A DNA stretch of 33,077 nt from Planctomycetes bacterium GWF2_41_51 (GTDB lineage Bacteria; Planctomycetota; Phycisphaerae; Sedimentisphaerales; UBA12454). The stretch covers positions 21,547-54,623 of the forward strand of contig MHXZ01000061.1 in the NCBI GenBank assembly GCA_001825665.1, written 5' to 3'. Both the position numbers and the translations under genes were made by a program. This document shows, piece by piece, positions 10,356-26,083 of this stretch. How positions within the stretch are numbered: position 1 is the stretch's first letter; every line of letters starts with the position of its first letter. The notes beneath the pieces were generated by a model. The model saw only the letters and a program-made list of their open reading frames with translations, had not been told where the DNA came from and did no database searches.

Positions 10356-12305
10356 CTAATTCAAAGGCCAATCGTCTGTTCTGAACGATGATGCAGGCAG
10401 CAGGGCGGAATTATAAAGATTCGGTGCGGCACAATTGCTCCAGCCGAAACGAACCGCTATCGGTTTTGCTACATCAGGACTTGATACAACAACACTGTTC
10501 CCATCAATCATAGCTTTTGCAGGTGTGAATTTTTTGTCCTCTCCTGCAATTGTGAACTCAGTTAGTTCACTTCCTTTAACCATTAAACCGTTTGCGGTAT
10601 AATCGAAGAAAATTCTGATCTTTGCCCCTTCGATTTTTATTTCCTTATATAAAGGCCCTGAAAAAATGACATCTGTTTTGCCGTAATGTTTGTTTAATGC
10701 CCATCTGGCGAGTCTGTCGCCGACATCGTGCTTGTTTCGCGGATGAATATCTTTTTCTTCACCTATATCCATAGTAACGGCCATACCTGTGTTCGGCAGC
10801 GAGAGAGTCATCATCTGGGCTTCACGCAAAGCCTGGCTGAAACATGAATCGCCGTATGCCCACGGTGCTATCTGGACATAATAAAACGGAAAATCTCCCT
10901 GCCCCCATCTGTTTCTCCAGTTTTGAATCATAGCAGGAAACAGAGTTCGATATTCGATTGGAAAGACAACGTTTCCTTCGCCCTGGTACCAGATGACACC
11001 TGCGAATTTAAAAGGTATAAGCGGGGCGATCATGCCATTGAATAAAGCAGTTGGAAAATTCTGACTGATTTTTGTAAACCGAGGCTCATGCCAATCCGTT
11101 TTCGGATTTGAAGTTTTGTATTTCCACTCGCCGGCGAGATTTACCAGTTCTTCGGAAGCAGTGGCAATTTTCATATCTTTTGATTCGCCGATAAAGCCGC
11201 CATCACCGCCGGTATCTATCACTCGAACAGCAATTATGTTGCGGCCTTTGTTTAAATATCCATAAGGAATTTTGTATGTTCGCTTTACATTGTATCCGAT
11301 TGTTGTACTGATGTAATGATTGTTAATCCAGACGCTGTCAATATCATCGATTTGGCCAAGATTTATTTCCAGGTTACGCGGAGGATTCTTTTCAAGATTA
11401 ATTTCTTTTCTGAACCAGACGCTGCCGTGAACGCCTTTGAGCGGACTATTTCCCCACCATGCGGGCTGATTTATCTGCTGCCAATCACTATCGTTAAAAT
11501 CCTTGTCGAACCATTTATCTTTTATGCCCTGATCTTCATCTTCGATTTTTTTGAGCCAGTCATTAATCATCTGCGCAAAAGCAACGTCGGGGTCTTCGTT
11601 GTTGTCTCTTACGCCTGTGATGATGTTTGCGGTATTCTTAAGCCTTTCAAAATTTTTAATCGTATCAAGGTCCATCCAGCATTCGGCTTCAGTTCCTCCC
11701 CAGTGCGAAGAAATAAGTCCGATTGGAACATTCAATTCCTCCTGGAGTCTTTTTCCGAAATAATATCCGACGGCTGAAAACCATTGGATATTGTCGCTTG
11801 TCGCAGGCAGCCAGGTGTTCCAGGAGCCGATGCAATCGTTTTCTTCGAAAATGGAATATCGTTGTTTTATATCGAATATTCTGATTTTGTCATTATTCGC
11901 ACGTGAAATATCTGTTCTGCTTCTCTCGGTTCCGAGCCATCCCATTGAAACTTGCATATTAGATTGACCTGAACAAATCCACACTTCTCCGATCAAAATA
12001 TCGGAAATAGTAATTTCATTGTTCCCTTTAATGTTAATTGAATGAGGTCCGCCTGCCGCCGGGGTAGGTATTTCGACCTTCCAGTTGCCATTGGCGTCTG
12101 CGATTGTGGAAATTTCCTGCTGCTGCCAGCTTGGAAGAATCGTTATTTTCTCCTGAGGCAAAGCCCATCCCCAGATTGGTACATTGCTTTTCTGTTGAAG
12201 TACCATATGGTCGCAAAAAACAGAAGCCGGCTTTGCATCGGGAAAAGCCTTTGTTGAAAATACTGCTGCAAGAACGCAAACCGTCAAAATCCATTTTTTT
12301 ATCAT
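10356..12305 (-). CDS. Sialate O-acetylesterase-like secreted carbohydrate esterase
   Basis: A 649-residue exported esterase of the SASA (SGNH-like) family, which removes O-acetyl groups from sugars. Start is the ATG at 12305, preceded by GAGG. It gives a signal peptide IKKWILTVCVLAAVFSTKAF. The catalytic serine is in ICSGQSNMQ (about S115). WYQGEGNV gives the conserved QGE block, and DIHPRNKHDVGDRLA supplies the Asp-His pair. A jelly-roll domain like that of GH2 N-terminal domains is inserted at about residues 250-390 (WFRKEINL, IDSVWINNHYI), a common arrangement in this family. It is second in a two-gene operon behind an SGNH lipoprotein. The context suggests deacetylation of a plant or algal glycan rather than sialic acid. 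Confidence 0.87.
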   Translation of the reverse strand: MIKKWILTVCVLAAVFSTKAFPDAKPASVFCDHMVLQQKSNVPIWGWALPQEKITILPSWQQQEISTIADANGNWKVEIPTPAAGGPHSINIKGNNEITISDILIGEVWICSGQSNMQVSMGWLGTERSRTDISRANNDKIRIFDIKQRYSIFEENDCIGSWNTWLPATSDNIQWFSAVGYYFGKRLQEELNVPIGLISSHWGGTEAECWMDLDTIKNFERLKNTANIITGVRDNNEDPDVAFAQMINDWLKKIEDEDQGIKDKWFDKDFNDSDWQQINQPAWWGNSPLKGVHGSVWFRKEINLEKNPPRNLEINLGQIDDIDSVWINNHYISTTIGYNVKRTYKIPYGYLNKGRNIIAVRVIDTGGDGGFIGESKDMKIATASEELVNLAGEWKYKTSNPKTDWHEPRFTKISQNFPTALFNGMIAPLIPFKFAGVIWYQGEGNVVFPIEYRTLFPAMIQNWRNRWGQGDFPFYYVQIAPWAYGDSCFSQALREAQMMTLSLPNTGMAVTMDIGEEKDIHPRNKHDVGDRLARWALNKHYGKTDVIFSGPLYKEIKIEGAKIRIFFDYTANGLMVKGSELTEFTIAGEDKKFTPAKAMIDGNSVVVSSPDVAKPIAVRFGWSNCAAPNLYNSALLPASSFRTDDWPLN

Positions 12306-12349
12306 TTGTGCCTCAATCAAAAATATTATATAGATGACAAAATAACAGA

Positions 12350-13084
12350 TTAATTATTTTTTTCAATCAAAGGTTTTACAAGGGATGTCCAAAGTTCATA
12401 TCCCTTTTCATTTATATGCAAACCATCTTCTTTGAAAAGTTCTTTGCGGGGATAACCTGTTTCATCGAGCATTACTTTCGATACATCAACAAAATATATT
12501 TCTTTTTGTGTCTTACAATACTCGTTTATGAGTGTGTTTGCTTCTTTCATTTTCGGCCAGTATTTCCATCTGTCTATACTTGGTTTAGTAGATACCACAA
12601 TAATTCTGGTTTCAGGAAAGGTTTTTCGAATTACAGAGACAAGCACTTTAAAATCTGCAAGCAGCATTTGGGGTGATTTATTGTCGGCAATGTCATTGTC
12701 GCCGGCGTAAAAAACTATAGTTTTGGGTTTGTAGGGGAGAATGATATCATCAGCATAATAAACAGAATCACATATATAGGAACCGCCAAAACCTCGATTA
12801 ATTGTTTTTGTGTCGCTAAACCATTTTTGAGTATCCCAGCCTACAATGCTTGAACTCCCAACAAACAGAACCTCGTTTAAAGGAGGGGGGTTATTTACGT
12901 CAATTTCTTTAAATTTTTGAATATTATTTTTCCATCTTTCAGGGTTTTTTACTAATAATGACTCATTATGCAGCTTTTTATCGGAATCAGAAAGGTCGCC
13001 ACTGCTAAGACAACTGGCGGAACAAAAAGCTAAAACAATGTAAACAATTATAGCCCAAAAGTTTTTGAACCGTGAATGAAACAT
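12350..13084 (-). CDS. SGNH/GDSL-family esterase, probable lipoprotein
   Basis: A 244-residue exported esterase. The ATG at 13084 is chosen because AGGAG lies seven bases upstream; a longer frame to 13123 lacks such a signal. The N-terminus has a hydrophobic helix ending in LAFCSASC, a possible but imperfect lipobox. SGNH blocks are visible: FVGSSSIVGW (block I, catalytic serine about S78), NRGFGGS (block II glycine), FYAGDNDI (block III), and DGLHIN near residue 220 (block V Asp and His). Likely activity is removal of acyl groups from a polysaccharide. It heads the minus-strand operon and is transcribed from a promoter carrying one copy of the 20-bp operator-like sequence. Confidence 0.87.
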   Translation of the reverse strand: MFHSRFKNFWAIIVYIVLAFCSASCLSSGDLSDSDKKLHNESLLVKNPERWKNNIQKFKEIDVNNPPPLNEVLFVGSSSIVGWDTQKWFSDTKTINRGFGGSYICDSVYYADDIILPYKPKTIVFYAGDNDIADNKSPQMLLADFKVLVSVIRKTFPETRIIVVSTKPSIDRWKYWPKMKEANTLINEYCKTQKEIYFVDVSKVMLDETGYPRKELFKEDGLHINEKGYELWTSLVKPLIEKNN

Positions 13085-13115
13085 TTCCAAACTCCTAAAA
13101 TTGAATATTTTAATT

Positions 13116-13135
13116 TTGTGCAACTATTTACACAG
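13116..13135 (-). promoter_or_regulatory. Operator-like near-palindrome, copy 1
   Basis: The minus strand reads CTGTGTAAATAGTTGCACAA, with half-sites TGTGTAA and TTGCACA. It starts two bases after the -10 box of the esterase promoter, over the expected transcription start. A second copy, differing at one base of 20, lies before the LacI-type gene. Confidence 0.7.
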
Positions 13136-13137
13136 TC

Positions 13138-13166
13138 ATTTTAACCGCATTTTATAGGAATTTCAA
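13138..13166 (-). promoter_or_regulatory. Promoter of the esterase operon
   Basis: On the minus strand TTGAAA (13166-13161) and TAAAAT (13143-13138) are spaced by 17 bases, each matching five of six consensus positions. The expected transcription start falls inside operator copy 1, giving a leader of about 45 bases before the SGNH-esterase ATG. Confidence 0.65.
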
Positions 13167-13273
13167 GTTTAAAATAATTTATTTGGCATTAAATTTGTTA
13201 TTATAAGACATTCAAGTGCAATGATTTACAAATTTAAATGAGATGTTTATTCTTTAAAAAAGCGATTTTTTGT

Positions 13274-13302
13274 TTGACAAAAGGATGTGAATATGGAAAA
13301 AT
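13274..13302 (+). promoter_or_regulatory. Promoter of the LacI-type regulator gene
   Basis: TTGACA (13274-13279, full consensus) is followed after 17 bases by AAAAAT (13297-13302, four of six). Operator copy 2 begins four bases downstream, over the expected start of transcription, and the TTG start codon lies about 45 bases further on. Confidence 0.5.
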
Positions 13303-13306
13303 AGGC

Positions 13307-13326
13307 CTGTGTAAATACTTGCACAA
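13307..13326 (+). promoter_or_regulatory. Operator-like near-palindrome, copy 2
   Basis: The plus strand reads CTGTGTAAATACTTGCACAA. It is identical to copy 1 (read on the minus strand) except for one base in the centre, and it has the same position and orientation relative to its own promoter. It probably mediates autoregulation by the LacI-family protein encoded just downstream. Confidence 0.7.
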
Positions 13327-13354: not shown

Positions 13355-14410
13355 TTGGCAGTAGGTGTATCGAGTTTGAAAGACGTAGCACAAGCGGCAA
13401 ATGTATCTGTTCCAACAGCTTCACGTATCCTAAGAAAGATAAATCTTACGAGGTTCTCTGAAGAGACTCGCAATAAAGTGTGGGATGCTGCCGCCAAGCT
13501 TCGCTATCGTCCAAATATGCTGGTGAAAGGAATTCAAACCGGAACGACTCATACAATAGGAGTTATGGTTCCGCCGTTTGATTCGTATTGGTCATCTATA
13601 TTATATGGTATTCACGACACTCTTATTACAGTTGATTTTGTTCCGATTAATCTTTGGGTTCGTCATGGAGATAATTTTTCCAGCAGCGGTCCTGTTGACG
13701 ATTTGGAGCAAATACATAGACTAATTGATAGACGTATTGACGGCGTAATAATGTGGCCGCCAATCACACCTGATTTTTATGCTCACAATGAAGAGCTTAC
13801 TTCAAGAAATGTTCCTGTATTGACAATTGACCATGAACTGCCGCCGGAATTTGGTGCTGATTCGATAACAACTAATGAAGAACATGGTGCGCAACTTGTA
13901 GCAAAACATCTGCTCGATCTTGGTCACAGGCGAATAGCACATTTGGGCGATGTGGGCCTTGAGACATATAGCTGGGCACAGAGACGCAGAATGTTTTTTG
14001 AAAAAGAAATAGCCGCTGTTCCGGGTGCTTCCTGTTTCGCTGTAGAAAAAAGGAAGAATGCCGATGGCCTTGAACTTGCCAAGAAAATTCTAACGGCAGA
14101 CCCAAGGCCGACAGCAGTTTATGCTGCCAGTGATTTGCTTGCACGGTACGTTTATCTTGCTGCTGCGGAACTTAAACTGAGAATTCCCGAAAATGTATCT
14201 GTTGTAGGATTCGCTGATTTGGATTTTGCGGCTTATATGATGCCGCCATTAACATCTGTAAGACAGAAAGGTTATGAAGTCGGCAGAAGAGCTGCAAAAC
14301 TCCTGATAGATCGTATTCAGGGCAAGTTCGCTCAAAACGGCATACAAAGCATAGTAATGAATTGTGAATTGGTCGTGCGTGGTTCCACCGCACCAGCCGC
14401 GAAGCAATAA
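13355..14410 (+). CDS. LacI-family transcriptional regulator
   Basis: A 351-residue sugar-responsive repressor. The TTG at 13355 is taken as start because GGAGGG lies eight bases upstream and the helix-turn-helix begins just after it (SSLKDVAQAANVSVPTASRIL). The open frame extends further upstream but over the promoter and operator. The linker (AAKLRYRPNMLVKGIQTGTT) and a periplasmic-binding-protein-like sensor domain follow (IGVMVPPF through VVRGST), with DLGHRRIAHLGD, AVYAASDLLA and VSVVGFADLDFA typical of the family. A 20-bp dyad overlaps both this gene's promoter and that of the divergent esterase operon. The inducer is unknown, presumably an oligosaccharide of the locus. Confidence 0.93.
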   Translation: MAVGVSSLKDVAQAANVSVPTASRILRKINLTRFSEETRNKVWDAAAKLRYRPNMLVKGIQTGTTHTIGVMVPPFDSYWSSILYGIHDTLITVDFVPINLWVRHGDNFSSSGPVDDLEQIHRLIDRRIDGVIMWPPITPDFYAHNEELTSRNVPVLTIDHELPPEFGADSITTNEEHGAQLVAKHLLDLGHRRIAHLGDVGLETYSWAQRRRMFFEKEIAAVPGASCFAVEKRKNADGLELAKKILTADPRPTAVYAASDLLARYVYLAAAELKLRIPENVSVVGFADLDFAAYMMPPLTSVRQKGYEVGRRAAKLLIDRIQGKFAQNGIQSIVMNCELVVRGSTAPAAKQ

Positions 14411-14459: not shown

Positions 14460-15905
14460 ATGAAGGCAAGAAAAATGATAAAGTATTTTGTAATAGTTTT
14501 GATGCTTTGCAGTATTTCGCAGGCAGCGGAATTACTTATTGAGGATTTTGAATCTTACGCTGATTCTATTGAGCTTTCTGCTGTTTGGAAGGAGAGGAAT
14601 ACAGCTGTTGTTGCGTTAAGCCTTGAAACCCTGGAAGCTAAAGACGGCTATAACTCGTTAGTTGTCGATTACAACAGCCGTGTTTCTCCGTACTGGTCTG
14701 AGACTTACACTATATACCCTGAAAATCAGGATTGGTCTGCATACAACACTTTGAATGTCTGGGTAAAAGGTTATGTAGGTACTGGTGTTCCGGGACAGAC
14801 ATCTGGTCAGTCAAACGAAAATATGTATGCTGTAATGTATAAACCCAAGCCAGAGTATCCGGATCCAATTAGTCATGACCAGTTGAGTATGTTGGGCAAA
14901 GTAGCGGTATACAGAGCTACGCAAATAGCTGATTGGACATTATTGCAATTTAATTTAGCGACTGATTTTGAACCGTTAACAAAAGTTTGCGCTATTGGAA
15001 TTGGAATATCTCCCTATTCATATGGTCCTGGAGTTGTAAAACTTGATGGCATATCTCTAAGCACTGAAAGCTATGGCGGCATTATTAATGATTTCGAGCG
15101 ATATGAAAATACAGCACAACTTCAAAGCGCTTTGGATGTCAATGAAGGTAATTCAGTTTGTTCTACAATGGAACTGGCCCTTGCTATTGAAGACGCAAAT
15201 GTCATATATGGTGACAAGGCTTTGAAATTCTCCTTTGACAATGGCTTGAATCCGTTTTGGTCAAAAGTGATGTTTAGACTACTTTATTCGCGTTCAATAA
15301 AGTACGCTTGGGGACCAGCCACATTTAATTACGGCATGAATTACAATCCATTGACTATTAATTTCAAAGTTATGGATGCTGAAGGCAAAATGCAGGTTGC
15401 ACTTATTGGTGAAGATGGTTTGGCTAAGGCATATTATAAATATAATGATGGTCAGCGCATTACCATAGGCGATTGGGTTCGGTGGGATATTAATCCACAG
15501 ACTGTATATAATGATCCAGAATCTCTGGGCACAGAGTTGGACGCAATTACCAGGGTAGAAATCCAATTCGTTCCTATTGGCGGAGATGATTATGGCACTG
15601 GAATAGTTTATCTGGATGATATTCATTTAAATTATTGCGGCCAAGGTGTCGGTGCTCCGGTTGTCGGAAATTTGAAAGCCGATTTTAATCAGGATTGTGT
15701 AATTGGCTTTATGGATTTTGTAGCCTTTGCTGAACATTGGCAGCAAACCGGCTGCACTGCCGGCAATCAATATTGCGGTGGAGCAGATTTCTTAGTCGGG
15801 CCTGATGGCGGCGTCCGAGACGGCGTAGTTAACACTGTGGATTTGGACGTAGTTTTTTATCGCTGGTTAGATTGCAATATGCTTTATCAGGGCGATTGCT
15901 TCTAA
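14460..15905 (+). CDS. Secreted protein with two CBM-like domains and a dockerin-like C-terminus
   Basis: A 481-residue exported protein; GGAGG precedes the ATG. A signal peptide (about residues 1-22, ending SQAAE) is followed by two copies of a beta-rich domain. Copy one begins LLIEDFESYADSIELSAVW (about 22-205), copy two begins IINDFERYENTAQLQSAL (about 208-390) and ends GIVYLDDIHLNY. The fold is probably a jelly-roll carbohydrate-binding module, like CBM11 or CIA30 domains; that is inference. The C-terminus has a dockerin-like pair of calcium-loop repeats, ADFNQDCVIGFMDFVAFAEHW and a second ending DVVFYRWLDC. No catalytic domain is seen. It lies 49 bases after the regulator gene and 14 before the glycosidase. 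Confidence 0.75.
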   Translation: MKARKMIKYFVIVLMLCSISQAAELLIEDFESYADSIELSAVWKERNTAVVALSLETLEAKDGYNSLVVDYNSRVSPYWSETYTIYPENQDWSAYNTLNVWVKGYVGTGVPGQTSGQSNENMYAVMYKPKPEYPDPISHDQLSMLGKVAVYRATQIADWTLLQFNLATDFEPLTKVCAIGIGISPYSYGPGVVKLDGISLSTESYGGIINDFERYENTAQLQSALDVNEGNSVCSTMELALAIEDANVIYGDKALKFSFDNGLNPFWSKVMFRLLYSRSIKYAWGPATFNYGMNYNPLTINFKVMDAEGKMQVALIGEDGLAKAYYKYNDGQRITIGDWVRWDINPQTVYNDPESLGTELDAITRVEIQFVPIGGDDYGTGIVYLDDIHLNYCGQGVGAPVVGNLKADFNQDCVIGFMDFVAFAEHWQQTGCTAGNQYCGGADFLVGPDGGVRDGVVNTVDLDVVFYRWLDCNMLYQGDCF

Positions 15906-15919
15906 GCGAAAGGTTTTTT

Positions 15920-17992
15920 GTGACTTTTAAAATAGCTACATCTTTGTTTATATGCTTTTTCATTGTAGCCGGATTGTATGCTGCGGATATTGTGATGAAC
16001 GCCTCTGATGTGTCGCACCCGTTCTACGGATTTGGCGCACAGGTTTGGCCTGGCGACTCTCGTGTAGAATCGCTGACTACCGGTCTGAACCTTAAATATT
16101 TCCGCATAGCACCAGGCGGATGCCCAACACCTCCGACAGATGCGACAGTTGCACAAATGGATGCTTATGTTAGTTCACAATATAACGGCACAGGCAGAGG
16201 CAACAATGTTACGGCTTCACTGCAAATGGCTGAAAATCTAAATGTAACAGTTATCTTTGTTAGGTTCGGCGGCCCGTCAGCATGGCTCGGAACCAATAAT
16301 CGGCTTTTAAGTCTATACTTCGATGATTATGCCAGACTTTGGGCTTCTGAGATTTATTTCTTCAAAAGCCGCGGTTTAAAAATCGATTATGTTGAACTGT
16401 TCAATGAGCCGGAAGGCGATTGGAATGTTTTGTGTCCCGGTGCTGATTATAATACATTTGTGAAACTTGTTCGGGCAGAACTCGACAGCAGAGGTCTGAC
16501 AGATGTCGGTATTGTCGGACCGGGATTGGCGTATCTTTATCATGGCACATCATGGATTGGCTCGCTTGATACTCAGGGTAAAAATGCTTTGGCAGCATGG
16601 TCAACGCACGCATGGGATGAGAGCTGGGGTAATACAAGTGCTCTGCCGAGTTTTCTTGATCAGCGGTGGCAAGATTACTTCGGAGCTGCGGTTAATTCAG
16701 CCGACCCTCAACATCTTAAACCAGTCATTGTAACCGAATATGCCAGTGGAGTACATACTTTTAATGGTGTTACTTTTGGCACAGATGAGTACGGCGATAC
16801 CTATCAGTTTGCTCAAAGATGTTACGAAAACACCCTGACTCTGGCCAATAATGGCGCAAACGTTCTTTGTTTCTGGGAAGCGGCGAATCAGAGCTGGCAA
16901 AGTCAGCCTATGTATGCTTTTATGCGAATCAATTCGACTTTAAGGCCAACATATTACGCTTTCTCTACGATTGCACCTTATGTCCCTGTGAATTCTATGG
17001 TATTAACTAAGACCTGGAACGACCTTGTTATCAGTGCGGCTGGATTTGTTAATGAAGATCGTCTTGTGCTCGCATTCGCCAACAGTTCGGCTAACACCAT
17101 TATTCGCTCGGTTCAGATTTCCGGCGTTACAACATTGGCAATTACCAATGCATTGGCATTCGAATTCGGCAATGTGATCGATAAGCGGTCGGAAATTTCG
17201 TATGATTACACGACTAATTCTATGAATATCAGCTTGCCGCGGGAAAGCACTCTCACCGTTGTAATGTCTCTTGATGAATGTTCGATAAAAACCGGCGGCG
17301 ATTTAAATGCTGACTGCAAAGTCAATATCGAAGATTTTTCAAAAGTTGCTTCTGATTGGATGACTGATAATCGCAATCCACAAAGCGACATTATTGAAAG
17401 TTTTGAATCTTATTCCGACTCCGCTGCATTGATTGCCAGATGGCTGCCTACGGCGAACGTAACTCTAACGCTCGACACCTCTGTCGTCCATATCGGAAGC
17501 AAATCTATGAAATATCAATACAACAATGGTATTTCCCCATATTTTTCAAAAGCTTCACATACGCTTGTTGGCGGCGGTTCAGGTGTTGACTGGTCGAATT
17601 ATGACACCCTGACCCTTTGGTTTAAATGTACCGCGGCAAAAGAGCCGCTGCAGGTGAATATCGTTAATAAAAACGGTGTTAATGTTTTAAATGTTCCCTA
17701 TGGTACTCCGAGCATTGGCGACTGGATAAGATGGGACATTGATTTAACACCGACTGCCGCAAGTGAAATAACACAAATTGGCCGTGTTGATATTTTCTTT
17801 ACCGCCAACCAATACGGTGCAGGGACTGTTTACATTGATGATATTTCAGTTTCAAATTCGGAATTACTGGCCTGCTCACAAATGATTGAAAATGACGTTA
17901 ATCAAGATTGTTCTGTAAATTTGAAAGATATAAAAATTATCGGTGATAATTGGCTCGATTGTACGTTAATCGAGCAGTCTGATTGTTGGTAA
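15920..17992 (+). CDS. Secreted clan GH-A glycoside hydrolase with dockerin-like and CBM-like domains
   Basis: A 690-residue exported glycosidase. The GTG at 15920 is chosen because AAAGG lies six bases upstream and a signal peptide follows at once (TFKIATSLFICFFIVAGLYA). The catalytic barrel starts at FYGFGAQVWPGD. It has the probable acid/base E163 in VELFNEPEGDW and nucleophile E273 in PVIVTEYASG, the clan GH-A pattern. Family is uncertain (GH30- or GH39-like). After a beta-domain come a dockerin-like repeat (about 458-480, DLNADCKVNIEDFSKVASDW), a CBM-like domain (about 490-645) homologous to the products on either side, and a second dockerin-like repeat (about 656-690). Likely cuts a polysaccharide outside the cell. 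Confidence 0.82.
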   Translation: MTFKIATSLFICFFIVAGLYAADIVMNASDVSHPFYGFGAQVWPGDSRVESLTTGLNLKYFRIAPGGCPTPPTDATVAQMDAYVSSQYNGTGRGNNVTASLQMAENLNVTVIFVRFGGPSAWLGTNNRLLSLYFDDYARLWASEIYFFKSRGLKIDYVELFNEPEGDWNVLCPGADYNTFVKLVRAELDSRGLTDVGIVGPGLAYLYHGTSWIGSLDTQGKNALAAWSTHAWDESWGNTSALPSFLDQRWQDYFGAAVNSADPQHLKPVIVTEYASGVHTFNGVTFGTDEYGDTYQFAQRCYENTLTLANNGANVLCFWEAANQSWQSQPMYAFMRINSTLRPTYYAFSTIAPYVPVNSMVLTKTWNDLVISAAGFVNEDRLVLAFANSSANTIIRSVQISGVTTLAITNALAFEFGNVIDKRSEISYDYTTNSMNISLPRESTLTVVMSLDECSIKTGGDLNADCKVNIEDFSKVASDWMTDNRNPQSDIIESFESYSDSAALIARWLPTANVTLTLDTSVVHIGSKSMKYQYNNGISPYFSKASHTLVGGGSGVDWSNYDTLTLWFKCTAAKEPLQVNIVNKNGVNVLNVPYGTPSIGDWIRWDIDLTPTAASEITQIGRVDIFFTANQYGAGTVYIDDISVSNSELLACSQMIENDVNQDCSVNLKDIKIIGDNWLDCTLIEQSDCW

Positions 17993-18051
17993 AAGTAAAA
18001 ATGTAAAGTTTGGAAATTTTTTTATTAACCCCTTTTTTTGGAGGACAAAAC

Positions 18052-18657
18052 ATGAGAAGAAGTTTAAGTTTATTGTTGGTGTTGGTTGTAGCGGCGTTGA
18101 GCCAGGCTGAAATCATTCAGATTGACAACTTTGAATCGTATACTAATACGATTGCATTGAAAACTGAATGGGCAAATACAGCTAATGTGACTCTGACGCT
18201 GGATACAGCAGAAGTTCATGGCGGCGCAAAATCAATGAAATATGCTTACAACAACGGGGCCAATCCCTGGTATGCAAAAGCAGAATATAATTTGAATGAA
18301 GTTGAGGACTGGACCGGCACAACAAGCGTTAATTTTTGGTACAAAGTAACAGCTAAAAAAGAACCAATGTGGATTAAGCTTGTCGTAGATGGTGGTAATG
18401 CTTATCAGAAGAATTTTGGTTCCGTATCAGTGGGAGATTGGACAGAAGGCGTATTGGATTTAACACAGCCGGATTCTTATGGCAACACTTTAACAGCTTA
18501 TCAAATTTCGCATATCGGAAGAATTGACATTGTTTTTTCCGCTGTGAACTATGGCGCAGGCACAGTTTACTTCGATGATTTTACACGTACTGTTCCGGAA
18601 CCTGCAACAGTTGCTCTGCTTAGCCTTGGCGGACTTTTATTAAGAAGACGTAAATAA
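18052..18657 (+). CDS. PEP-CTERM protein with a CBM-like domain
   Basis: A 201-residue exported protein; GGAGG precedes the ATG at 18052. A signal peptide (RRSLSLLLVLVVAALSQAE) precedes one CBM-like domain, beginning IQIDNFESYTNTIALKTEW and ending YGAGTVYFDDFTRT. This is close to the domain inside the upstream glycosidase: both share the NVTLTLDT..VH.G.KSMKY.YNNG pattern. The tail VPEPATVALLSLGGLLLRRRK is a PEP-CTERM signal (VPEP, hydrophobic helix, basic end) for exosortase processing. No catalytic residues are seen. It may display the binding domain at the cell surface. It ends 16 bases before a terminator, closing this part of the operon. Confidence 0.85.
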   Translation: MRRSLSLLLVLVVAALSQAEIIQIDNFESYTNTIALKTEWANTANVTLTLDTAEVHGGAKSMKYAYNNGANPWYAKAEYNLNEVEDWTGTTSVNFWYKVTAKKEPMWIKLVVDGGNAYQKNFGSVSVGDWTEGVLDLTQPDSYGNTLTAYQISHIGRIDIVFSAVNYGAGTVYFDDFTRTVPEPATVALLSLGGLLLRRRK

Positions 18658-19681: not shown

Positions 19682-21703
19682 ATGAAATATTTAGGGATGC
19701 CGGATTATCTTATCATAGGCGCGTATTTTCTTTCGCTGATAGTCTTGGGTTTATACCTGAGCAGGAAAGCTTCTTCGAGCCTTGATGATTATTTTTTGGC
19801 AGGCCGAAAATTGCCTTGGTGGGTTTTAGGTGTCGGCGGAATGGGGTGGTCAGTAGATATAGCGGGAACAATGCTTATCGTTTCGCTGCTTTATTTGCTT
19901 GGTCCCCGCAGCTTGTTTATCGAATTCCGCGGCGGAGTTCCGCTCGGCCTTGTTTTTACAATGATATGGACAGGCAAATGGCACAGGCGCAGCGGCTGTA
20001 TGACTGGCGCTGAATGGATGTCTTTCAGATTCGGTAACTGCTTCGGGGCAAATTTTGCTCGAATCGCAAAGGTAATCGCCTTGCTTGTTTTCACAATCGG
20101 AATGCTCGTCTATATGATAAAGGGTGTCGGACTATTCTTTGCAATGTTTATTCCTCTTACACCTTTTCAGTGCTCTCTTATTATGATTGGCTTAACAACT
20201 CTTTATACCATCGCATCGGGTTTTTATGGAGTTGTATTCAGCGATTTACTCCAGTGCGGACTTGTTTTGGCAGGTATGGCATTTATCACTGTATTGGCTG
20301 TACTTAAAATTGCAAACGCAGGCGGCGATTTAAGCGGTATTACTGAAACTGTTACAGGATGCAGCCAATGGTTGACCTCCTTCCCTCAACAGTTCGCGAA
20401 TATGCCGAAAGGTTACGAAGTTTACGAGTCGCTGTTTATGTTTACTATCTTTCTGCTGCTTCGAAATATTATTATGGGTTTCGGCACCGGCGACGACCCT
20501 CATTATTTCGCAGCAAAAAATGAACGCGAATGCGGCAAAGTCGCATGTCTGTGGATGTCGCTAAGTACATTTCGCTGGCCGATGATGATTAGTTATGCAA
20601 TTCTGGGAATATTTATAGTCAAGGATATGTTTCCAGACCATGCGGTTCTCGCTCAAGCTGCGATACTTATTAAACAACAGCTCGGTAATGTTACACCCGG
20701 GCAATGGGCAGATGCACTTGCGAACATAATGAATAATCCGGCAGCTTATCCTGCCGAATTTATAGAAAGTCTAAAAAGTATGTTAGGGAGCAATTGGGGC
20801 GAAAGACTTCATTTGCTCAGTTATGATGGAACTGTCAACGCCGAGAGAATAATGCCTGCTGTTCTTCTATATTCGATTCCATCCGGATTCAGAGGACTTA
20901 TTTTTGTATCGCTGCTTGCCGCGGAAATGTCCACTTTTGATATTACTATCAACAAAGCGGCATCATTTTTCACTAAAGATATATATCAAAGATATCTCCG
21001 TCCTGCGGCAGTAAACAGAGAATTGATGTGGGCGACTTATTTATTTACTATCGCACTTGTCGCAAGCGGTTTTGCAATGGCTTATTCCGTGAAGAATATA
21101 AATGATATATGGGGCTGGATTACAATGGGACTTGTTTCAGGCTTATCTGTTCCTTCGCTGCTGAAAATGTATTGGTGGCGATTTAACGGTGGCGGTTTTG
21201 CAATCGGTACTATGGCTGGAACATTTGGTGCAGTTGCGCAAAGGCTGTTTTGGCCGCAGCTTCCTGAACAATGGCAGTTTGTATCTTTGACCCTTTTTGC
21301 AGGTGTTTGCTCGATTATCGGCACTTATCTTACGAAACCGACAGAAAAACAGGTTTTAGAGAATTTTTATAGGATTACGAGACCTTTTGGTTTTTGGAAT
21401 CCTCTGCTTCATATTCTACCTGAAGACATCAGGACAAAAATGAAGAAAGAGCACAAAAACGATTTGCTTGCTGTTCCGTTTGTGGGAATATGGCTTGTAA
21501 CGATGTTTCTGATGCCAATGCAATTGATTATAAAACAGTATAAGGCTTTTAATATTTCACTTGGTCTTTTTGTTTTAAGCATTATCTTTATATATATTTT
21601 CTGGTACAAAAATCTTCCATCCGTTGAGGATGTTAGAATAACAGAGAAACACCTGGAAAATCAAAATATTAAACAGGAAGAAATTGTTTGTGAAAAAAAC
21701 TGA
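19682..21703 (+). CDS. SSS-family sodium:solute (probable oligosaccharide) symporter
   Basis: A 673-residue inner-membrane transporter with about 13-15 helices. The start has GGAGG five bases upstream. SSS-family features are YFLSLIVLGLYLSRKASSSLDDYFLAGR at the N-terminus, the GGMGWSVDIAGTMLIVSLL helix, IASGFYGVVFSDLLQ near residue 180, and AAEMSTFDITINKAASFFTKDIYQRY near residue 420. Members use a Na+ gradient to import sugars or other small solutes. It heads a tight operon with a GH5-like glycosidase and two GH130 enzymes, which points to import of mannose-containing oligosaccharides; specificity cannot be read from the sequence. The last 40 residues form a charged cytoplasmic tail. The NQR complex at the left of the window could help supply the Na+ gradient. 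Confidence 0.9.
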   Translation: MKYLGMPDYLIIGAYFLSLIVLGLYLSRKASSSLDDYFLAGRKLPWWVLGVGGMGWSVDIAGTMLIVSLLYLLGPRSLFIEFRGGVPLGLVFTMIWTGKWHRRSGCMTGAEWMSFRFGNCFGANFARIAKVIALLVFTIGMLVYMIKGVGLFFAMFIPLTPFQCSLIMIGLTTLYTIASGFYGVVFSDLLQCGLVLAGMAFITVLAVLKIANAGGDLSGITETVTGCSQWLTSFPQQFANMPKGYEVYESLFMFTIFLLLRNIIMGFGTGDDPHYFAAKNERECGKVACLWMSLSTFRWPMMISYAILGIFIVKDMFPDHAVLAQAAILIKQQLGNVTPGQWADALANIMNNPAAYPAEFIESLKSMLGSNWGERLHLLSYDGTVNAERIMPAVLLYSIPSGFRGLIFVSLLAAEMSTFDITINKAASFFTKDIYQRYLRPAAVNRELMWATYLFTIALVASGFAMAYSVKNINDIWGWITMGLVSGLSVPSLLKMYWWRFNGGGFAIGTMAGTFGAVAQRLFWPQLPEQWQFVSLTLFAGVCSIIGTYLTKPTEKQVLENFYRITRPFGFWNPLLHILPEDIRTKMKKEHKNDLLAVPFVGIWLVTMFLMPMQLIIKQYKAFNISLGLFVLSIIFIYIFWYKNLPSVEDVRITEKHLENQNIKQEEIVCEKN

Positions 21704-24038
21704 TTTCATATTTTGCTTTTATGTTTTCTTTTTCTATCTGGCCGCATTGTCTTCAACGGCTATAGGGGGCTACTCTGTCGCTGTGATGGAAAATGACAAA
21801 ACAGCGGATAACCTGCTTTCTGCATTGAATTCAGATTTTAAAGTCGATTCGATTGCATACAGCAATTTTAATAAATTAAGTAATTACGATTGTCTTATCA
21901 TTTCGGATAATATCAGCCTCTCTGACGTTCAGCAGAAAAAATTATTGAACTTCCTCAAATCGGGAAAAGATTTAGTCCTGCTGGGCGCGAAAGATATTAA
22001 CCTCCCCCAGTTGCCTGTTTTCGAACGGCGAGAAATTTATTATTATAAAAAAACAACTGGTATAGTATCGTATAATAATCAAAAAGTCACAAAGTCTAAA
22101 ATAAACATGAAGGGTGATTTTTCCGGTACATCCGCCATCGCATTCGAATATCCCGAAGTATCACGATATGTTCCTTTGTTAGCTGTCAAAGATAAATATT
22201 CGCGAAATAGCGGTTTTGCAGCCGGCCTATTAGTTAACTATGCAGGTGAATTTGAAAACAGCAGTTGGCTCTTGTTCGGAGTTGATTCGAAAGATTTTTA
22301 CGCAAGCGATGAATTTGTGAATATCACAGTTGAAGTAATTAATAAAATTAAAAACAAAAATTTTGCATTAGATTTTAGAAAAGAAGATAAGGCTGATAAA
22401 AACACATATTTGCCAATATCCTCACCTGCACCCACTGATTTTATAAGACTAAGTAGTGATAAAAAACATTTTATATTGCCAAACGGAAAAAAGTTTTTCG
22501 CTTTAGGTTGCAACTATATTGGTCCTTTTGAAAGAAAAACCGAATACGGCGAAGATTACTATAATGCAAAACGTCTCGAACAGGATTTTCAAAAGGCAAA
22601 AGAAGCAGGCATTAATTCCTTTAGATTTTGGAACGTTCGTATCGACCAATACCCTGAGAGATTTAAAACTATAATAGAGTTGGCGAGGAAATACCAAATT
22701 TATTTAATTTTGCAGCCTCGTGAGCATCCTCTGCCTACCGATAAAAAACAAATGAAATTGTTCCGGAGAAATGCTTCTGTAGTTAATGATGAGACCATCG
22801 CTTTGGGATACGACCTGATGAACGAACCTTACATTACTATGGTTGGTTCGACAAGTGTGAATGGCAGAAAAACTGAGATATTACAGCATAAAGTATATGA
22901 AAACTATTCTGATGATTATTTTGATAGAAAATGGGTTGATGATATTGTTGCTAATCCAGGTGGCTGGCCGGAACTTGGAAAATGGATAAAAGGCAAAGAT
23001 GCCAAAAATCTTTACGCCGCTCATTCGATGTTAAGAAATTATATTGAAAAATACAATCCTGCAACGGACTACTCCACCCTTTACGGCTTAGATGGCGAAT
23101 TGCCAATAGAACCGGAATATGAAAATTTCATAGCGTCTGTTGATAAAACTTTCGCTGACTGGATACTTTTTCATAAAAAGTCTATAGAACAATTCGGTAA
23201 AAACCATTTTATATCAGTCGGCTATAATACCTCATTGGCGGCTCTTCCATGTAATAATCTTCTCGATTTCGCATCACATCATATCTATCAGATGCCTTAT
23301 TCCTATGAAGATGTAATGAAAAGCGTAACAACTTTCGACCGTTTAAGAGCTTTTTGGCCCGACAAACCAATTACTCTCGGCGAATTTGGTTTCTCAGGCG
23401 GCTTAAAAATGCCTGATGGAAAGTATCTCGGTCAGGACGCTGCAAGTGTTGCTGAGATGATTGTATATTTATATGCTTTCGCAAATGATTACTCAGGCGC
23501 TTATCTTTGGATGCTTTCAGAATGGCCTCTTGCGAATATGAGATATAATGCTCCCTGGATATCAGATGACAGGCAGGTTTACGAATCGCAATTTGGAATG
23601 TATTACTATGATGGTACTCCGCAGGGCCATCCAAAACCAATAGCTTACGCGACTAAATTCTTCCGTGAATATATTGATTCTCACAATCCGGGTGATGGCA
23701 AGCTGGACATAATTCACGCAGATACACCTACGAAGACAGGATATGTTTTTTCGGATGCAGACGCTTTGTTTGTAGGTAACACAAAATACGATTCCAAATG
23801 TTTGAAGTTCTACAGCTCATCACCTGTTAACGTAATGTTGAAATGGAACTCGGATGAATTAAAAATTATGGCTACGAAGGATATAGAAGTAAAATTAAAT
23901 ATGGCAGAGTTTGGTTTTTCAAAAAACAATGTTTTAAACGCGGACAGCTTATATGACTCTTTTGAAAAAACCGATGACTCAATTAAAATTAAATTACTTA
24001 AAGGAAATATTGTAACATTTACTGGAAAAAAGAAATAA
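21690..24038 (+). CDS. Glycoside hydrolase, GH5/mannanase-like, with N-terminal GATase-like domain
   Basis: A 782-residue protein. The GTG at 21690 is preferred over a TTG two codons earlier, because GGAAG lies nine bases upstream. It overlaps the transporter gene by 14 bases. An N-terminal hydrophobic segment (about 5-27) looks like a signal peptide. Residues about 28-230 resemble a glutamine-amidotransferase/ThuA-like fold (YSVAVMENDKTADNLLSAL, YDCLIISDNISLSD, LLNFLKSGKDLVLLGA) but lack an obvious catalytic cysteine. The catalytic barrel starts near residue 260 (LPNGKKFFALGCNYIG). It has acid/base E379 in YDLMNEPY and nucleophile E565 in ITLGEFGFSGG, as in clan GH-A mannanase-like GH5 enzymes. 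With the GH130 genes downstream, beta-mannan or mannoside cleavage is likely. Confidence 0.8.
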   Translation: MKKTDFIFCFYVFFFYLAALSSTAIGGYSVAVMENDKTADNLLSALNSDFKVDSIAYSNFNKLSNYDCLIISDNISLSDVQQKKLLNFLKSGKDLVLLGAKDINLPQLPVFERREIYYYKKTTGIVSYNNQKVTKSKINMKGDFSGTSAIAFEYPEVSRYVPLLAVKDKYSRNSGFAAGLLVNYAGEFENSSWLLFGVDSKDFYASDEFVNITVEVINKIKNKNFALDFRKEDKADKNTYLPISSPAPTDFIRLSSDKKHFILPNGKKFFALGCNYIGPFERKTEYGEDYYNAKRLEQDFQKAKEAGINSFRFWNVRIDQYPERFKTIIELARKYQIYLILQPREHPLPTDKKQMKLFRRNASVVNDETIALGYDLMNEPYITMVGSTSVNGRKTEILQHKVYENYSDDYFDRKWVDDIVANPGGWPELGKWIKGKDAKNLYAAHSMLRNYIEKYNPATDYSTLYGLDGELPIEPEYENFIASVDKTFADWILFHKKSIEQFGKNHFISVGYNTSLAALPCNNLLDFASHHIYQMPYSYEDVMKSVTTFDRLRAFWPDKPITLGEFGFSGGLKMPDGKYLGQDAASVAEMIVYLYAFANDYSGAYLWMLSEWPLANMRYNAPWISDDRQVYESQFGMYYYDGTPQGHPKPIAYATKFFREYIDSHNPGDGKLDIIHADTPTKTGYVFSDADALFVGNTKYDSKCLKFYSSSPVNVMLKWNSDELKIMATKDIEVKLNMAEFGFSKNNVLNADSLYDSFEKTDDSIKIKLLKGNIVTFTGKKK

Positions 24039-25051
24039 TGAAACTGACAAGATACGAAAATAATCCTATTCTCTCTCCTAATTCTGTCAACGCATGGGAA
24101 AATCTGGTTACTACTAATCCGGCGGCATGGTATGACTCTGACATTGGCGAAGTAAAGCTGATATATCGTGCTGCCGGCGATGATGATAAACATTATGTTC
24201 ATCTTGGTTTGGCGACGAGTAAAAACGGTTATGATTTTGTTCGTAAAAATGGTAAACCAATTGTTTCGCCGATTAAAGATGTCGGTGCAGGCTGTATTGA
24301 GGATCCGCGCGTAATAAAGATGGACGGCTGTTACTATATTACTTTTGCATTTAGACCTTTTGCTCCGGGCAAGTATTGGATACCCGAAGATCTTCGAAAA
24401 TACAGTCCTCCGGTTCTGAATAATAGTTATCCAAGGTTTTTACGTGAAAATCTTTCCGGCACGGGTTTGCTTGTTTCGCCTGATTTAAACGAGTTTACTT
24501 ATGCAGGTATGCTTACGAACCCGTCATTTGATGATCGTGATGTTATAATTTTCCCTGAAAAAATCAAAGGCAAATATGTTACTCTTCATCGCCCGATGGA
24601 GTGGTGCGGGAAACAGTATGGAACCGATTATCCCGCTATGTGGATAGCTTTTTCAGATGATTTACTGGGCTGGAAAGACATCAAACTTCTTGCTAAAGGA
24701 AAATACGACTGGGAACAAAAAATTGGCGGCTCTACGCCTCCAATTAAAACTAAAGATGGCTGGCTTGTTATTTACCATGCTGTAGGTAAAGATAGATTTT
24801 ACCGTGTAGGCGCTATGCTGCTCGATCTCGAAAATCCTATGAAAATTCTTCATAGAAGTCCTGACTGGCTTTTACAGCCGGAAAAAACCTACGAAACACA
24901 AGGCCTTTATAATGGCGTAATTTTCCCTTGCGGGAATGTTGTTATTGATGGTAAATTATTTGTTTATTACGGCGGCGCAGACAAATATGTGGGTCTTGCA
25001 ACCTGCGAACTTGATGAATTACTTGACTATTTATGTACATGTTCTGATTGA
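24038..25051 (+). CDS. GH130 family mannoside phosphorylase/hydrolase, copy 1
   Basis: A 337-residue cytoplasmic enzyme with the five-bladed beta-propeller signatures of GH130. Visible are YENNPILSP at the start, the catalytic region GCIEDPRVIKMDGCYY (about residue 88; D of EDPR is the likely proton donor), FDDRDVIIFPEKIKGKYVTLHRP, KIGGSTPPIKTKDGWLVIYH, and FVYYGGADKYVGLAT at the end. GH130 enzymes act on beta-mannosides by phosphorolysis, giving mannose 1-phosphate, or less often by hydrolysis. The subfamily is not assigned. The stop of the preceding gene overlaps its start (TAATG), so translation is coupled. No signal peptide. Confidence 0.9.
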   Translation: MKLTRYENNPILSPNSVNAWENLVTTNPAAWYDSDIGEVKLIYRAAGDDDKHYVHLGLATSKNGYDFVRKNGKPIVSPIKDVGAGCIEDPRVIKMDGCYYITFAFRPFAPGKYWIPEDLRKYSPPVLNNSYPRFLRENLSGTGLLVSPDLNEFTYAGMLTNPSFDDRDVIIFPEKIKGKYVTLHRPMEWCGKQYGTDYPAMWIAFSDDLLGWKDIKLLAKGKYDWEQKIGGSTPPIKTKDGWLVIYHAVGKDRFYRVGAMLLDLENPMKILHRSPDWLLQPEKTYETQGLYNGVIFPCGNVVIDGKLFVYYGGADKYVGLATCELDELLDYLCTCSD

Positions 25052-25063
25052 ATGAGGTATACA

Positions 25064-26083
25064 ATGAGTGACGGACTTGCAAATACAATTAATGATATCT
25101 TAAAAAAGAAAAAAGAAACTGCGATAAAATCTATCCCATGGGAAGAACGTCCGGCCGGCTGCACTGATATAGTCTGGCGTTCACAAAGGAATCCTATTAT
25201 ACCGCGTAATTTGCTGCCGAAATCGAACAGCATTTTTAATAGTGCGGTTGTGCGATTTGGCCAGGGTTTCGCTGGTGTTTTTCGCTGTGATGATAAAATG
25301 AGAAATATGCAGCTTCATGTGGGCATTAGCGATGACGGAATCAAATGGCACATAGAATCTGAAAGATTAAAATTCAAATGCAAAGATAATAATCTCGGCA
25401 ATTGGGAGTTCGGCTATGACCCGCGCGTTTGCTGGATAGAAGACCGTTATTATGTAACATGGTGCAATGGTTATCATGGGCCGACAATAGGAATGGCGTA
25501 CACTAATGATTTCATTGATTTCCATCAATTGGAGAACGCATTCCTGCCGTTCAATAGGAATGGTGTGCTTTTTCCGCGTAAAATCAAAGGCGAGTATGCT
25601 ATGCTTTCGCGTCCGAGCGACAATGGTCACACTCCCTTCGGTGATATTTTTTATAGCCAAAGCCCAAATATGATTCACTGGGGCAGGCATCGATTTGTTA
25701 TGGGTACGACATCAGGTTGGCAGGCAACTAAAATTGGAGCAGGTCCGATTCCTATCGAAACCCCCCAGGGATGGCTGCTGTTTTATCATGGTGTTTTGAC
25801 AAGCTGCAATGGTTTTGTTTACAGTATGGGTGCTGCGTTACTCGATTTGGACGAACCATGGAAAGTTCTCGCCAGAACTTCCTCCTATTTGCTCTCACCT
25901 CAGCAAAATTATGAATGCGTCGGTGATGTGCCTAATGTCGTATTTCCCTGTGCGGCTTTGTATGATGAACCTACAGGCCGAATAGCCGTTTATTATGGCG
26001 GTGCAGACACTGTTACGTGTTTGGCATTTTGCAAAATAGAAGAGGTATTGCAATTTCTTAAAGAAGATAATTGTATTAAATAG
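25064..26083 (+). CDS. GH130 family mannoside phosphorylase/hydrolase, copy 2
   Basis: A 339-residue cytoplasmic GH130 enzyme. The ATG at 25064 is chosen because TGAGG lies six bases upstream; an ATG four codons earlier would overlap that site. Motifs are [38 protein letters not shown] with the likely proton donor aspartate, [38 protein letters not shown] and [15 protein letters not shown]. It is clearly diverged from copy 1, with a different N-terminal extension, so the two probably act on different linkages or chain lengths, as seen in other mannan loci. Last gene of the transporter operon, ending 13 bases before a hairpin. Confidence 0.9.

What the first reader, a model, noticed from the sequence alone, without database searches (positions are those of the whole stretch)
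13116..13326. Twin 20-bp operators on divergent promoters of the esterase operon and the LacI-type gene
Seen directly: the 20-mer CTGTGTAAATAsTTGCACAA (s = G or C) occurs on the minus strand at 13135-13116 and on the plus strand at 13307-13326, with one difference. Each copy begins two to four bases after a -10 box of a promoter with 17-base spacing (TTGAAA/TAAAAT leftward, TTGACA/AAAAAT rightward). The copies therefore have equivalent positions for two diverging transcripts. The site is a near-palindrome (TGTGTAA/TTGCACA) and lies beside a LacI-family gene. Inference: the encoded regulator represses both operons, including its own. The dyad lacks the central CG usual in LacI-family operators and has too wide a spacing for CRP, so it may be an unusual operator class.
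Basis: partly seen in the sequence, partly recalled or inferred. Interest (0 to 1): 0.75.

Follow-up and report, generated by a model that had tools for sequence, protein, structure and literature searches.

The report
Twin TA-centred operators of LacI-type repressor
Two near-identical 18-base palindromes sit on back-to-back promoters and are very probably the docking sites of a LacI-type repressor that controls itself and a set of glycan-digesting genes; they are ordinary in layout, but their TA centre, in place of the family's usual CG, is shared by a whole branch of related repressors and goes with changes in the part of the protein expected to touch that centre.

Summary
CTGTGTAAATAsTTGCACAA occurs twice in the window, at the stated places, directly after the -10 boxes of two divergent promoters, and nowhere else in the 4.8-Mb genome with fewer than 3 mismatches. 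The 18-bp core is an even palindrome, TGTGYAART|AYTTRCACA, centred on TA. Both copies persist at equivalent places in four relatives (regulator identity 95, 90, 89, 73%) while the DNA between them diverges, so the autoregulatory operator reading is strongly supported. Neighbouring genes encode esterases, a sodium:solute symporter and two GH130 phosphorylases, pointing to a beta-mannan or similar locus. The layout is textbook LacI-family. The missing central CG is real and systematic: relatives of this regulator across Planctomycetota carry other TA-centred candidates (TGATAAAGT|ACTTTATCA, GGCGCAAAT|ATTTGCGCA, TACGTAAAT|ATTTACGTA, AAAGAAAGT|ACTTTCTTT), whereas other LacI-type genes sampled mostly have CG. 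The TA clade has Val/Ile in place of hinge-helix Ala51 (PurR numbering), with Leu50 and Gln55. Non-CG even operators were already reported for about 4% of LacI-family regulators, so this is a new variant of a known kind. Binding and repression are inferred, not shown.

The parts
13117..13134 (-). Left operator, 18-bp even palindrome TGTGTAAAT|AGTTGCACA (on - strand), over the start of the esterase-operon transcript
   Evidence: conserved in L010/L014, L015, L016, L017
13308..13325 (+). Right operator, TGTGTAAAT|ACTTGCACA, over the start of the regulator transcript
   Evidence: conserved in L010/L014, L015, L016, degenerate in L017
13138..13166 (-). Esterase-operon promoter TTGAAA-17-TAAAAT
13274..13302 (+). 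Regulator promoter TTGACA-17-AAAAAT
   Evidence: TTGACA-17-NAWAAT recurs in the four relatives
13355..14410 (+). LacI-family regulator, TTG start, 351 aa; hinge RPNMLVKGIQTG (V51, I54, Q55 in PurR numbering)
   Evidence: Pfam LacI 6.9e-13 and Peripla_BP_3 1.2e-31; PurR is the best solved relative, E about 1e-32
12350..13087 (-). GDSL-type esterase, first gene of the leftward operon
   Evidence: Pfam Lipase_GDSL_2 4.3e-15
10356..12320 (-). SASA-type carbohydrate esterase, second gene of the leftward operon
   Evidence: Pfam SASA 3.4e-16
14460..18657 (+). Putative secreted or carbohydrate-binding proteins downstream of the regulator (weak CBM_11; PEP-CTERM)
19682..21703 (+). Sodium:solute symporter
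   Evidence: Pfam SSF 1.2e-23
21684..24038 (+). Large protein with a weak GH5-like segment, putative glycoside hydrolase
   Evidence: Pfam Cellulase E 0.0026, below the curated cut-off
24038..26083 (+). Two GH130 phosphorylases
   Evidence: Pfam Glyco_hydro_130 1.7e-51 and 1.3e-71

Best explanation
The two copies are operators of the LacI-family protein encoded at 13355-14410. A dimer binds each 18-bp site over the transcription start region (about -2 to +17, inferred from the -10 boxes) and blocks both the leftward esterase operon and its own rightward operon; a sugar released from a beta-mannan-like glycan is the likely inducer. The operator is of the ordinary even LacI/PurR/GalR type except for the central step, TA instead of CG. 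This departure is a property of a clade of planctomycete regulators whose hinge helix has Val/Ile where the family has Ala51, together with Leu50 and Gln55. The sequence, the places and the conservation are shown; binding, repression, inducer and the causal role of the hinge residues are inferred.
For: Two sites unique in window and genome. Conservation of both sites and of the promoter in four relatives amid diverged DNA; in the family, matches at this locus occur only in genomes with the ortholog. Arg at recognition-helix position 20 goes with G at NT-6, as the published LacI code says (PMC2978694); relatives with Ile or Leu there tend to T. Twin sites in relatives too: TGATAAAGT|ACTTTATCA-type sites about 65 bp and about 220-440 bp upstream of group-C regulators, with symporter, GH5-like and GH130 genes divergent in L103. 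Centre versus residue 51, gene by gene: V/I 14 TA and 3 CG; A 1 TA and 21 CG; stricter site set: V/I 12 TA of 14, A 12 CG of 15. L098 has Ala51 although it lies inside the V/I clade, and its candidate sites are CG-centred.
Against: No binding data. The centre counts are not phylogenetically independent and rest on an automatic palindrome call that is noisy (it picked an A/T-rich, probably chance CG site for the window's own gene). Residues 50, 51 and 55 change together. L092 has Val51 with a weak CG-centred candidate, and several clade members (for example L018, L019, L020, L079, L091, L095) show no clear site. The 83-85% identical second copies L032 and L033/L011 lack the site upstream.
Confidence: 0.88

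Rival explanations
1. The dyads are sites of another regulator (a CRP/FNR- or Rex-like protein, or one of the other 22 LacI-type genes), and the neighbouring lacI-type gene is only a target.
For: The genome has 23 LacI-domain matches; the TGTG...CACA ends resemble CRP and Rex half-sites.
Against: Spacing is TGTG-N10-CACA, two bases wider than the CRP or Rex consensus (from general knowledge); the sites occur only at this locus in the genome, which does not suit a global regulator; they travel with this ortholog, and other TA-centred sites sit beside its distant relatives.
Confidence: 0.07
2. The dyads act in RNA, as hairpins in the two 5' leaders.
For: Each can form a 7-bp stem with a 4-base loop.
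Against: The leaders fold no better than shuffles (z 0.11 and -0.41) and have no Rfam match; the copies keep a fixed place just after the -10 box.
Confidence: 0.02
3. About the centre only: residues other than 51, such as Leu50 or Gln55 or the hinge as a whole, set the TA centre, or TA is a neutral relic of shared ancestry.
For: Leu50 and Gln55 split the data nearly as well (15 TA:3 CG and 14:4); the V/I51 genes are mostly one lineage.
Against: L098 keeps Ile54 and Gln55 but has Ala51 and CG-centred candidates; the outer half-sites diverged widely in the clade with the TA centre kept.
Confidence: 0.45

Closest known systems
LacI/GalR-family local sugar repressors with divergent autoregulated operons
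   Same: Even palindromic operator, G at NT-6 with Arg20, sites over promoters, autoregulation (72% of studied members, PMC4052901), sugar operon next door
   Different: Central TA; Val51, Ile54, Gln55 in the hinge
PurR (E. coli), best solved relative
   Same: Colinear LacI domain and hinge; half-site of the G-C-A-A type
   Different: PurR operators have a central CG; PurR has Ala51, Leu54, Lys55; different ligand and genes (general knowledge)
Minority LacI-family motifs: even with another central pair (49 of 1251, PMC4052901) and odd EbgR-like ones (PMC2329647)
   Same: No central CG, which in the EbgR-like case coincides with loss of the usual hinge Ala and Leu
   Different: EbgR-like sites have odd spacing with a single central base; here spacing is even and the centre is TA
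Roseburia intestinalis mannan utilization loci (PMC6385246)
   Same: LacI-type regulator with GH130 phosphorylases and two carbohydrate esterases, and an epimerase as in group B here
   Different: Firmicute; ABC transporter rather than sodium:solute symporter; its operator was not compared

Membership tests
LacI/GalR family regulator | N-terminal LacI HTH plus periplasmic-binding-protein-like core | tested here: met
   PurR alignment over residues 7-346
LacI/GalR family regulator | Hinge helix with Ala51 and Leu54 (PurR numbering); majority, not universal, features of the family | tested here: not met
   V51 and I54 in RPNMLVKGIQTG
LacI-family operator | Even palindrome of 16-22 bp near the promoter of the regulator or a neighbour | tested here: met
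LacI-family operator | Central CG pair (1173 of 1251 even motifs; majority, not universal) | tested here: not met
   Central TA in both window sites and in 7 of 8 sites of the four relatives; the eighth, the right site of L017, has CA. So a minority form of the family's operator
LacI-family operator | Conservation with the regulator's orthologs | tested here: met
LacI-family operator | Specific binding by the cognate protein, released by a ligand | not testable with these tools
   needs gel shift or DAP-seq
CRP site | TGTGA-N6-TCACA spacing | tested here: not met
   read directly: TGTG-N10-CACA
Beta-mannan utilization locus | GH130 mannoside phosphorylase with mannanase, esterases, transporter | tested here: inconclusive
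   GH130 x2, esterases, SSF found; no confident mannanase, and GH130 also includes beta-1,2-mannoside enzymes

The most novel reading that the evidence does not exclude
A planctomycete clade of LacI-family repressors has changed the central step of its operators from CG to TA through replacement of hinge-helix Ala51 by Val/Ile (with Leu50/Gln55), a swap that one lineage (L098) has undone; this would separate the role of residue 51 from that of residue 54 in choosing the central step.
Probability: 0.35. Interest if true: 0.6.

Novelty: new variant of a known kind. Interest (0 to 1): 0.42.

Why it matters
The link between hinge residues 51/54 and the central CG could not be resolved by covariation in earlier work because both sides hardly vary (PMC2978694). 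This clade varies both, so it gives natural pairs for asking which residue reads the central step, and TA-centred repressor/operator sets that may be orthogonal to CG-centred ones. It also supplies an operator motif for a putative mannan regulon in a phylum for which the large LacI-family survey (PMC4052901) does not mention any member.

Tried and rejected
Regulon beyond the locus: no site with fewer than 3 mismatches elsewhere in the genome, none convincing in the rest of the window; one extra 1-mismatch site in G001 was looked at but not resolved. A third site midway at 13215 (14 of 18 consensus positions) is within the shuffle range and not seen in L010. RNA hairpin rejected. The protein-first search of genome contigs gave 3 loci only. 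Paper searches for LacI operators with a TA centre found nothing, which is weak evidence since most subscription papers are not held. The L025 repeat (CTTGGCGCCAAG twice) forms one long inverted repeat and was not counted as an operator.

Full report
What is there. The 20-mer is present twice, exactly where stated, with no third copy at up to 3 mismatches and none in shuffles. In the 4.83-Mb genome the 18-bp core has the two window matches and seven at 3 mismatches, against five for the reversed control. The core reads TGTGYAART|AYTTRCACA: an 18-bp even palindrome centred on TA. The copies begin 4 and 2 bases after the -10 boxes of two divergent promoters with 17-base spacers.

Gene starts. 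The longest ORF for the regulator begins at 13238, which would put the right copy inside the coding region. The ribosome-binding site GGAGG and the relatives place the start at TTG 13355 (TTG or GTG in all five orthologs). The esterase most likely starts at ATG 13087. Both dyads are then in untranslated DNA.

Conservation. Relatives with 95, 90, 89 and 73% identical regulators (L010/L014, L015, L016, L017) keep a site at both places and keep the promoter TTGACA-17-NAWAAT; the same kind of esterase is divergent in L100 and L101. In an alignment of five intergenic regions 24 of 36 operator columns are invariant against 23% of 203 columns between the operators. L013 and L014 are close, so the effective depth is about four. 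In the family, matches at this locus are found only in genomes with the ortholog; other matches there have 2 mismatches, apart from one 1-mismatch site in G001.

Recognition logic. PurR is the best solved relative and aligns without gaps through the hinge: YSPSAVARSLKV against YRPNMLVKGIQT, so Ala51, Leu54, Lys55 become Val51, Ile54, Gln55. Arg20 with G at NT-6 fits the published code (PMC2978694). Regulators of group C and L230/L231, which have Ile or Leu at position 20, tend to have T at NT-6.

The centre. Ravcheev and colleagues found CG in 1173 of 1251 even motifs, another pair in 49 and a degenerate one in 29 (PMC4052901). I searched order, phylum and class for relatives, fetched other LacI-type genes of eight genomes and scored even palindromes upstream. 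In the stricter set Val/Ile51 genes gave 12 TA, 1 CG and 1 GC sites, and Ala51 genes 12 CG and one each of TA, GC and AT; shuffled sequence gave at most about one site per centre and class. Gene by gene, with a looser rule and more loci: V/I51 14 TA, 3 CG, 1 GC; A51 1 TA, 21 CG, 5 AT, 1 GC. Fisher P is 6e-7 for TA against CG but is overstated, since the V/I51 genes are mostly one lineage. Best single examples: TACGTAAAT|ATTTACGTA (L235), GGCGCAAAT|ATTTGCGCA (L093), AAAGAAAGT|ACTTTCTTT (L240, Ile51), TGATAAAGT|ATTTTATCA (L029) against GTAGTAAAC|GTTTACTTG (L048, own genome) and TTGGGGAAC|GTTCCCTAT (L012, Paenibacillus). L098 lies inside the V/I clade with well-supported branches but has Ala51, and its candidates are CG-centred. 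L092 (Val51, Lys55) has a weak CG-centred candidate and is an exception.

Mechanism. Shown: sequence, place, conservation, association of centre with clade. Inferred: dimer binding over the start site blocks both promoters; a glycan-derived sugar releases it. Why TA might suit Val/Ile: a TpA step lacks the guanine amino groups of the minor groove and kinks easily, so a bulkier residue 51 could be accommodated. This is chemical reasoning from general knowledge and was not tested.

Biology. Leftward: GDSL-type and SASA-type esterases. Rightward behind the regulator: secreted proteins, a pilin-like protein, symporter, weak GH5-like protein, two GH130 phosphorylases. One operon for the whole rightward stretch is assumed, not shown. 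Group C and B relatives stand divergent to a symporter, GH5-like and GH130 genes (L103), or to a pilin-like gene, symporter and epimerase (L105). This resembles mannan loci of Roseburia (PMC6385246), but the substrate is not settled because GH130 includes beta-1,2-mannoside enzymes.

Verdict. Ordinary in layout; a systematic variant in the centre of the operator.

Noticed in passing
L032 (G002), L033 and L119 (G001), L011: Two genomes carry a second, 83-85% identical copy of the regulator without an upstream operator; in L119 it follows an ORF of 387 codons that ends 34 bases before the conserved domain. Its targets are unknown.
   Followed up: partly
G503 (7.4 Mb, same class; for example L150-L209): A single planctomycete genome has at least 127 LacI-domain matches, an extreme expansion.
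   Followed up: no
13355 and orthologs L014-L017: All five orthologs start the regulator with TTG or GTG, never ATG, which may keep repressor levels low.
   Followed up: partly
L027, L034, L035, L036, L037, L039, upstream of the regulator: A second conserved inverted repeat, TTTGCG-N7/8-CGCAAA with small variations, lies between the TA-centred site and the regulator gene in group B.
   Followed up: no
L097, about 30-70 bases upstream of the regulator: Two overlapping TA-centred sites 12 bp apart (AGCGCAAATACTTGCGCAAGTATTTGCGCT) share a half-site.
   Followed up: no
L025, about -109 and -134: CTTGGCGCCAAG occurs twice and the two form a long inverted repeat with a 9-base loop; nature unknown.
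   Followed up: no
L248 (G001:C203:2506-2523): One extra 1-mismatch site, TGTGTAAATACTTACACG, upstream of an ORF that resembles a SIS-domain protein by eye, far from the locus.
   Followed up: partly
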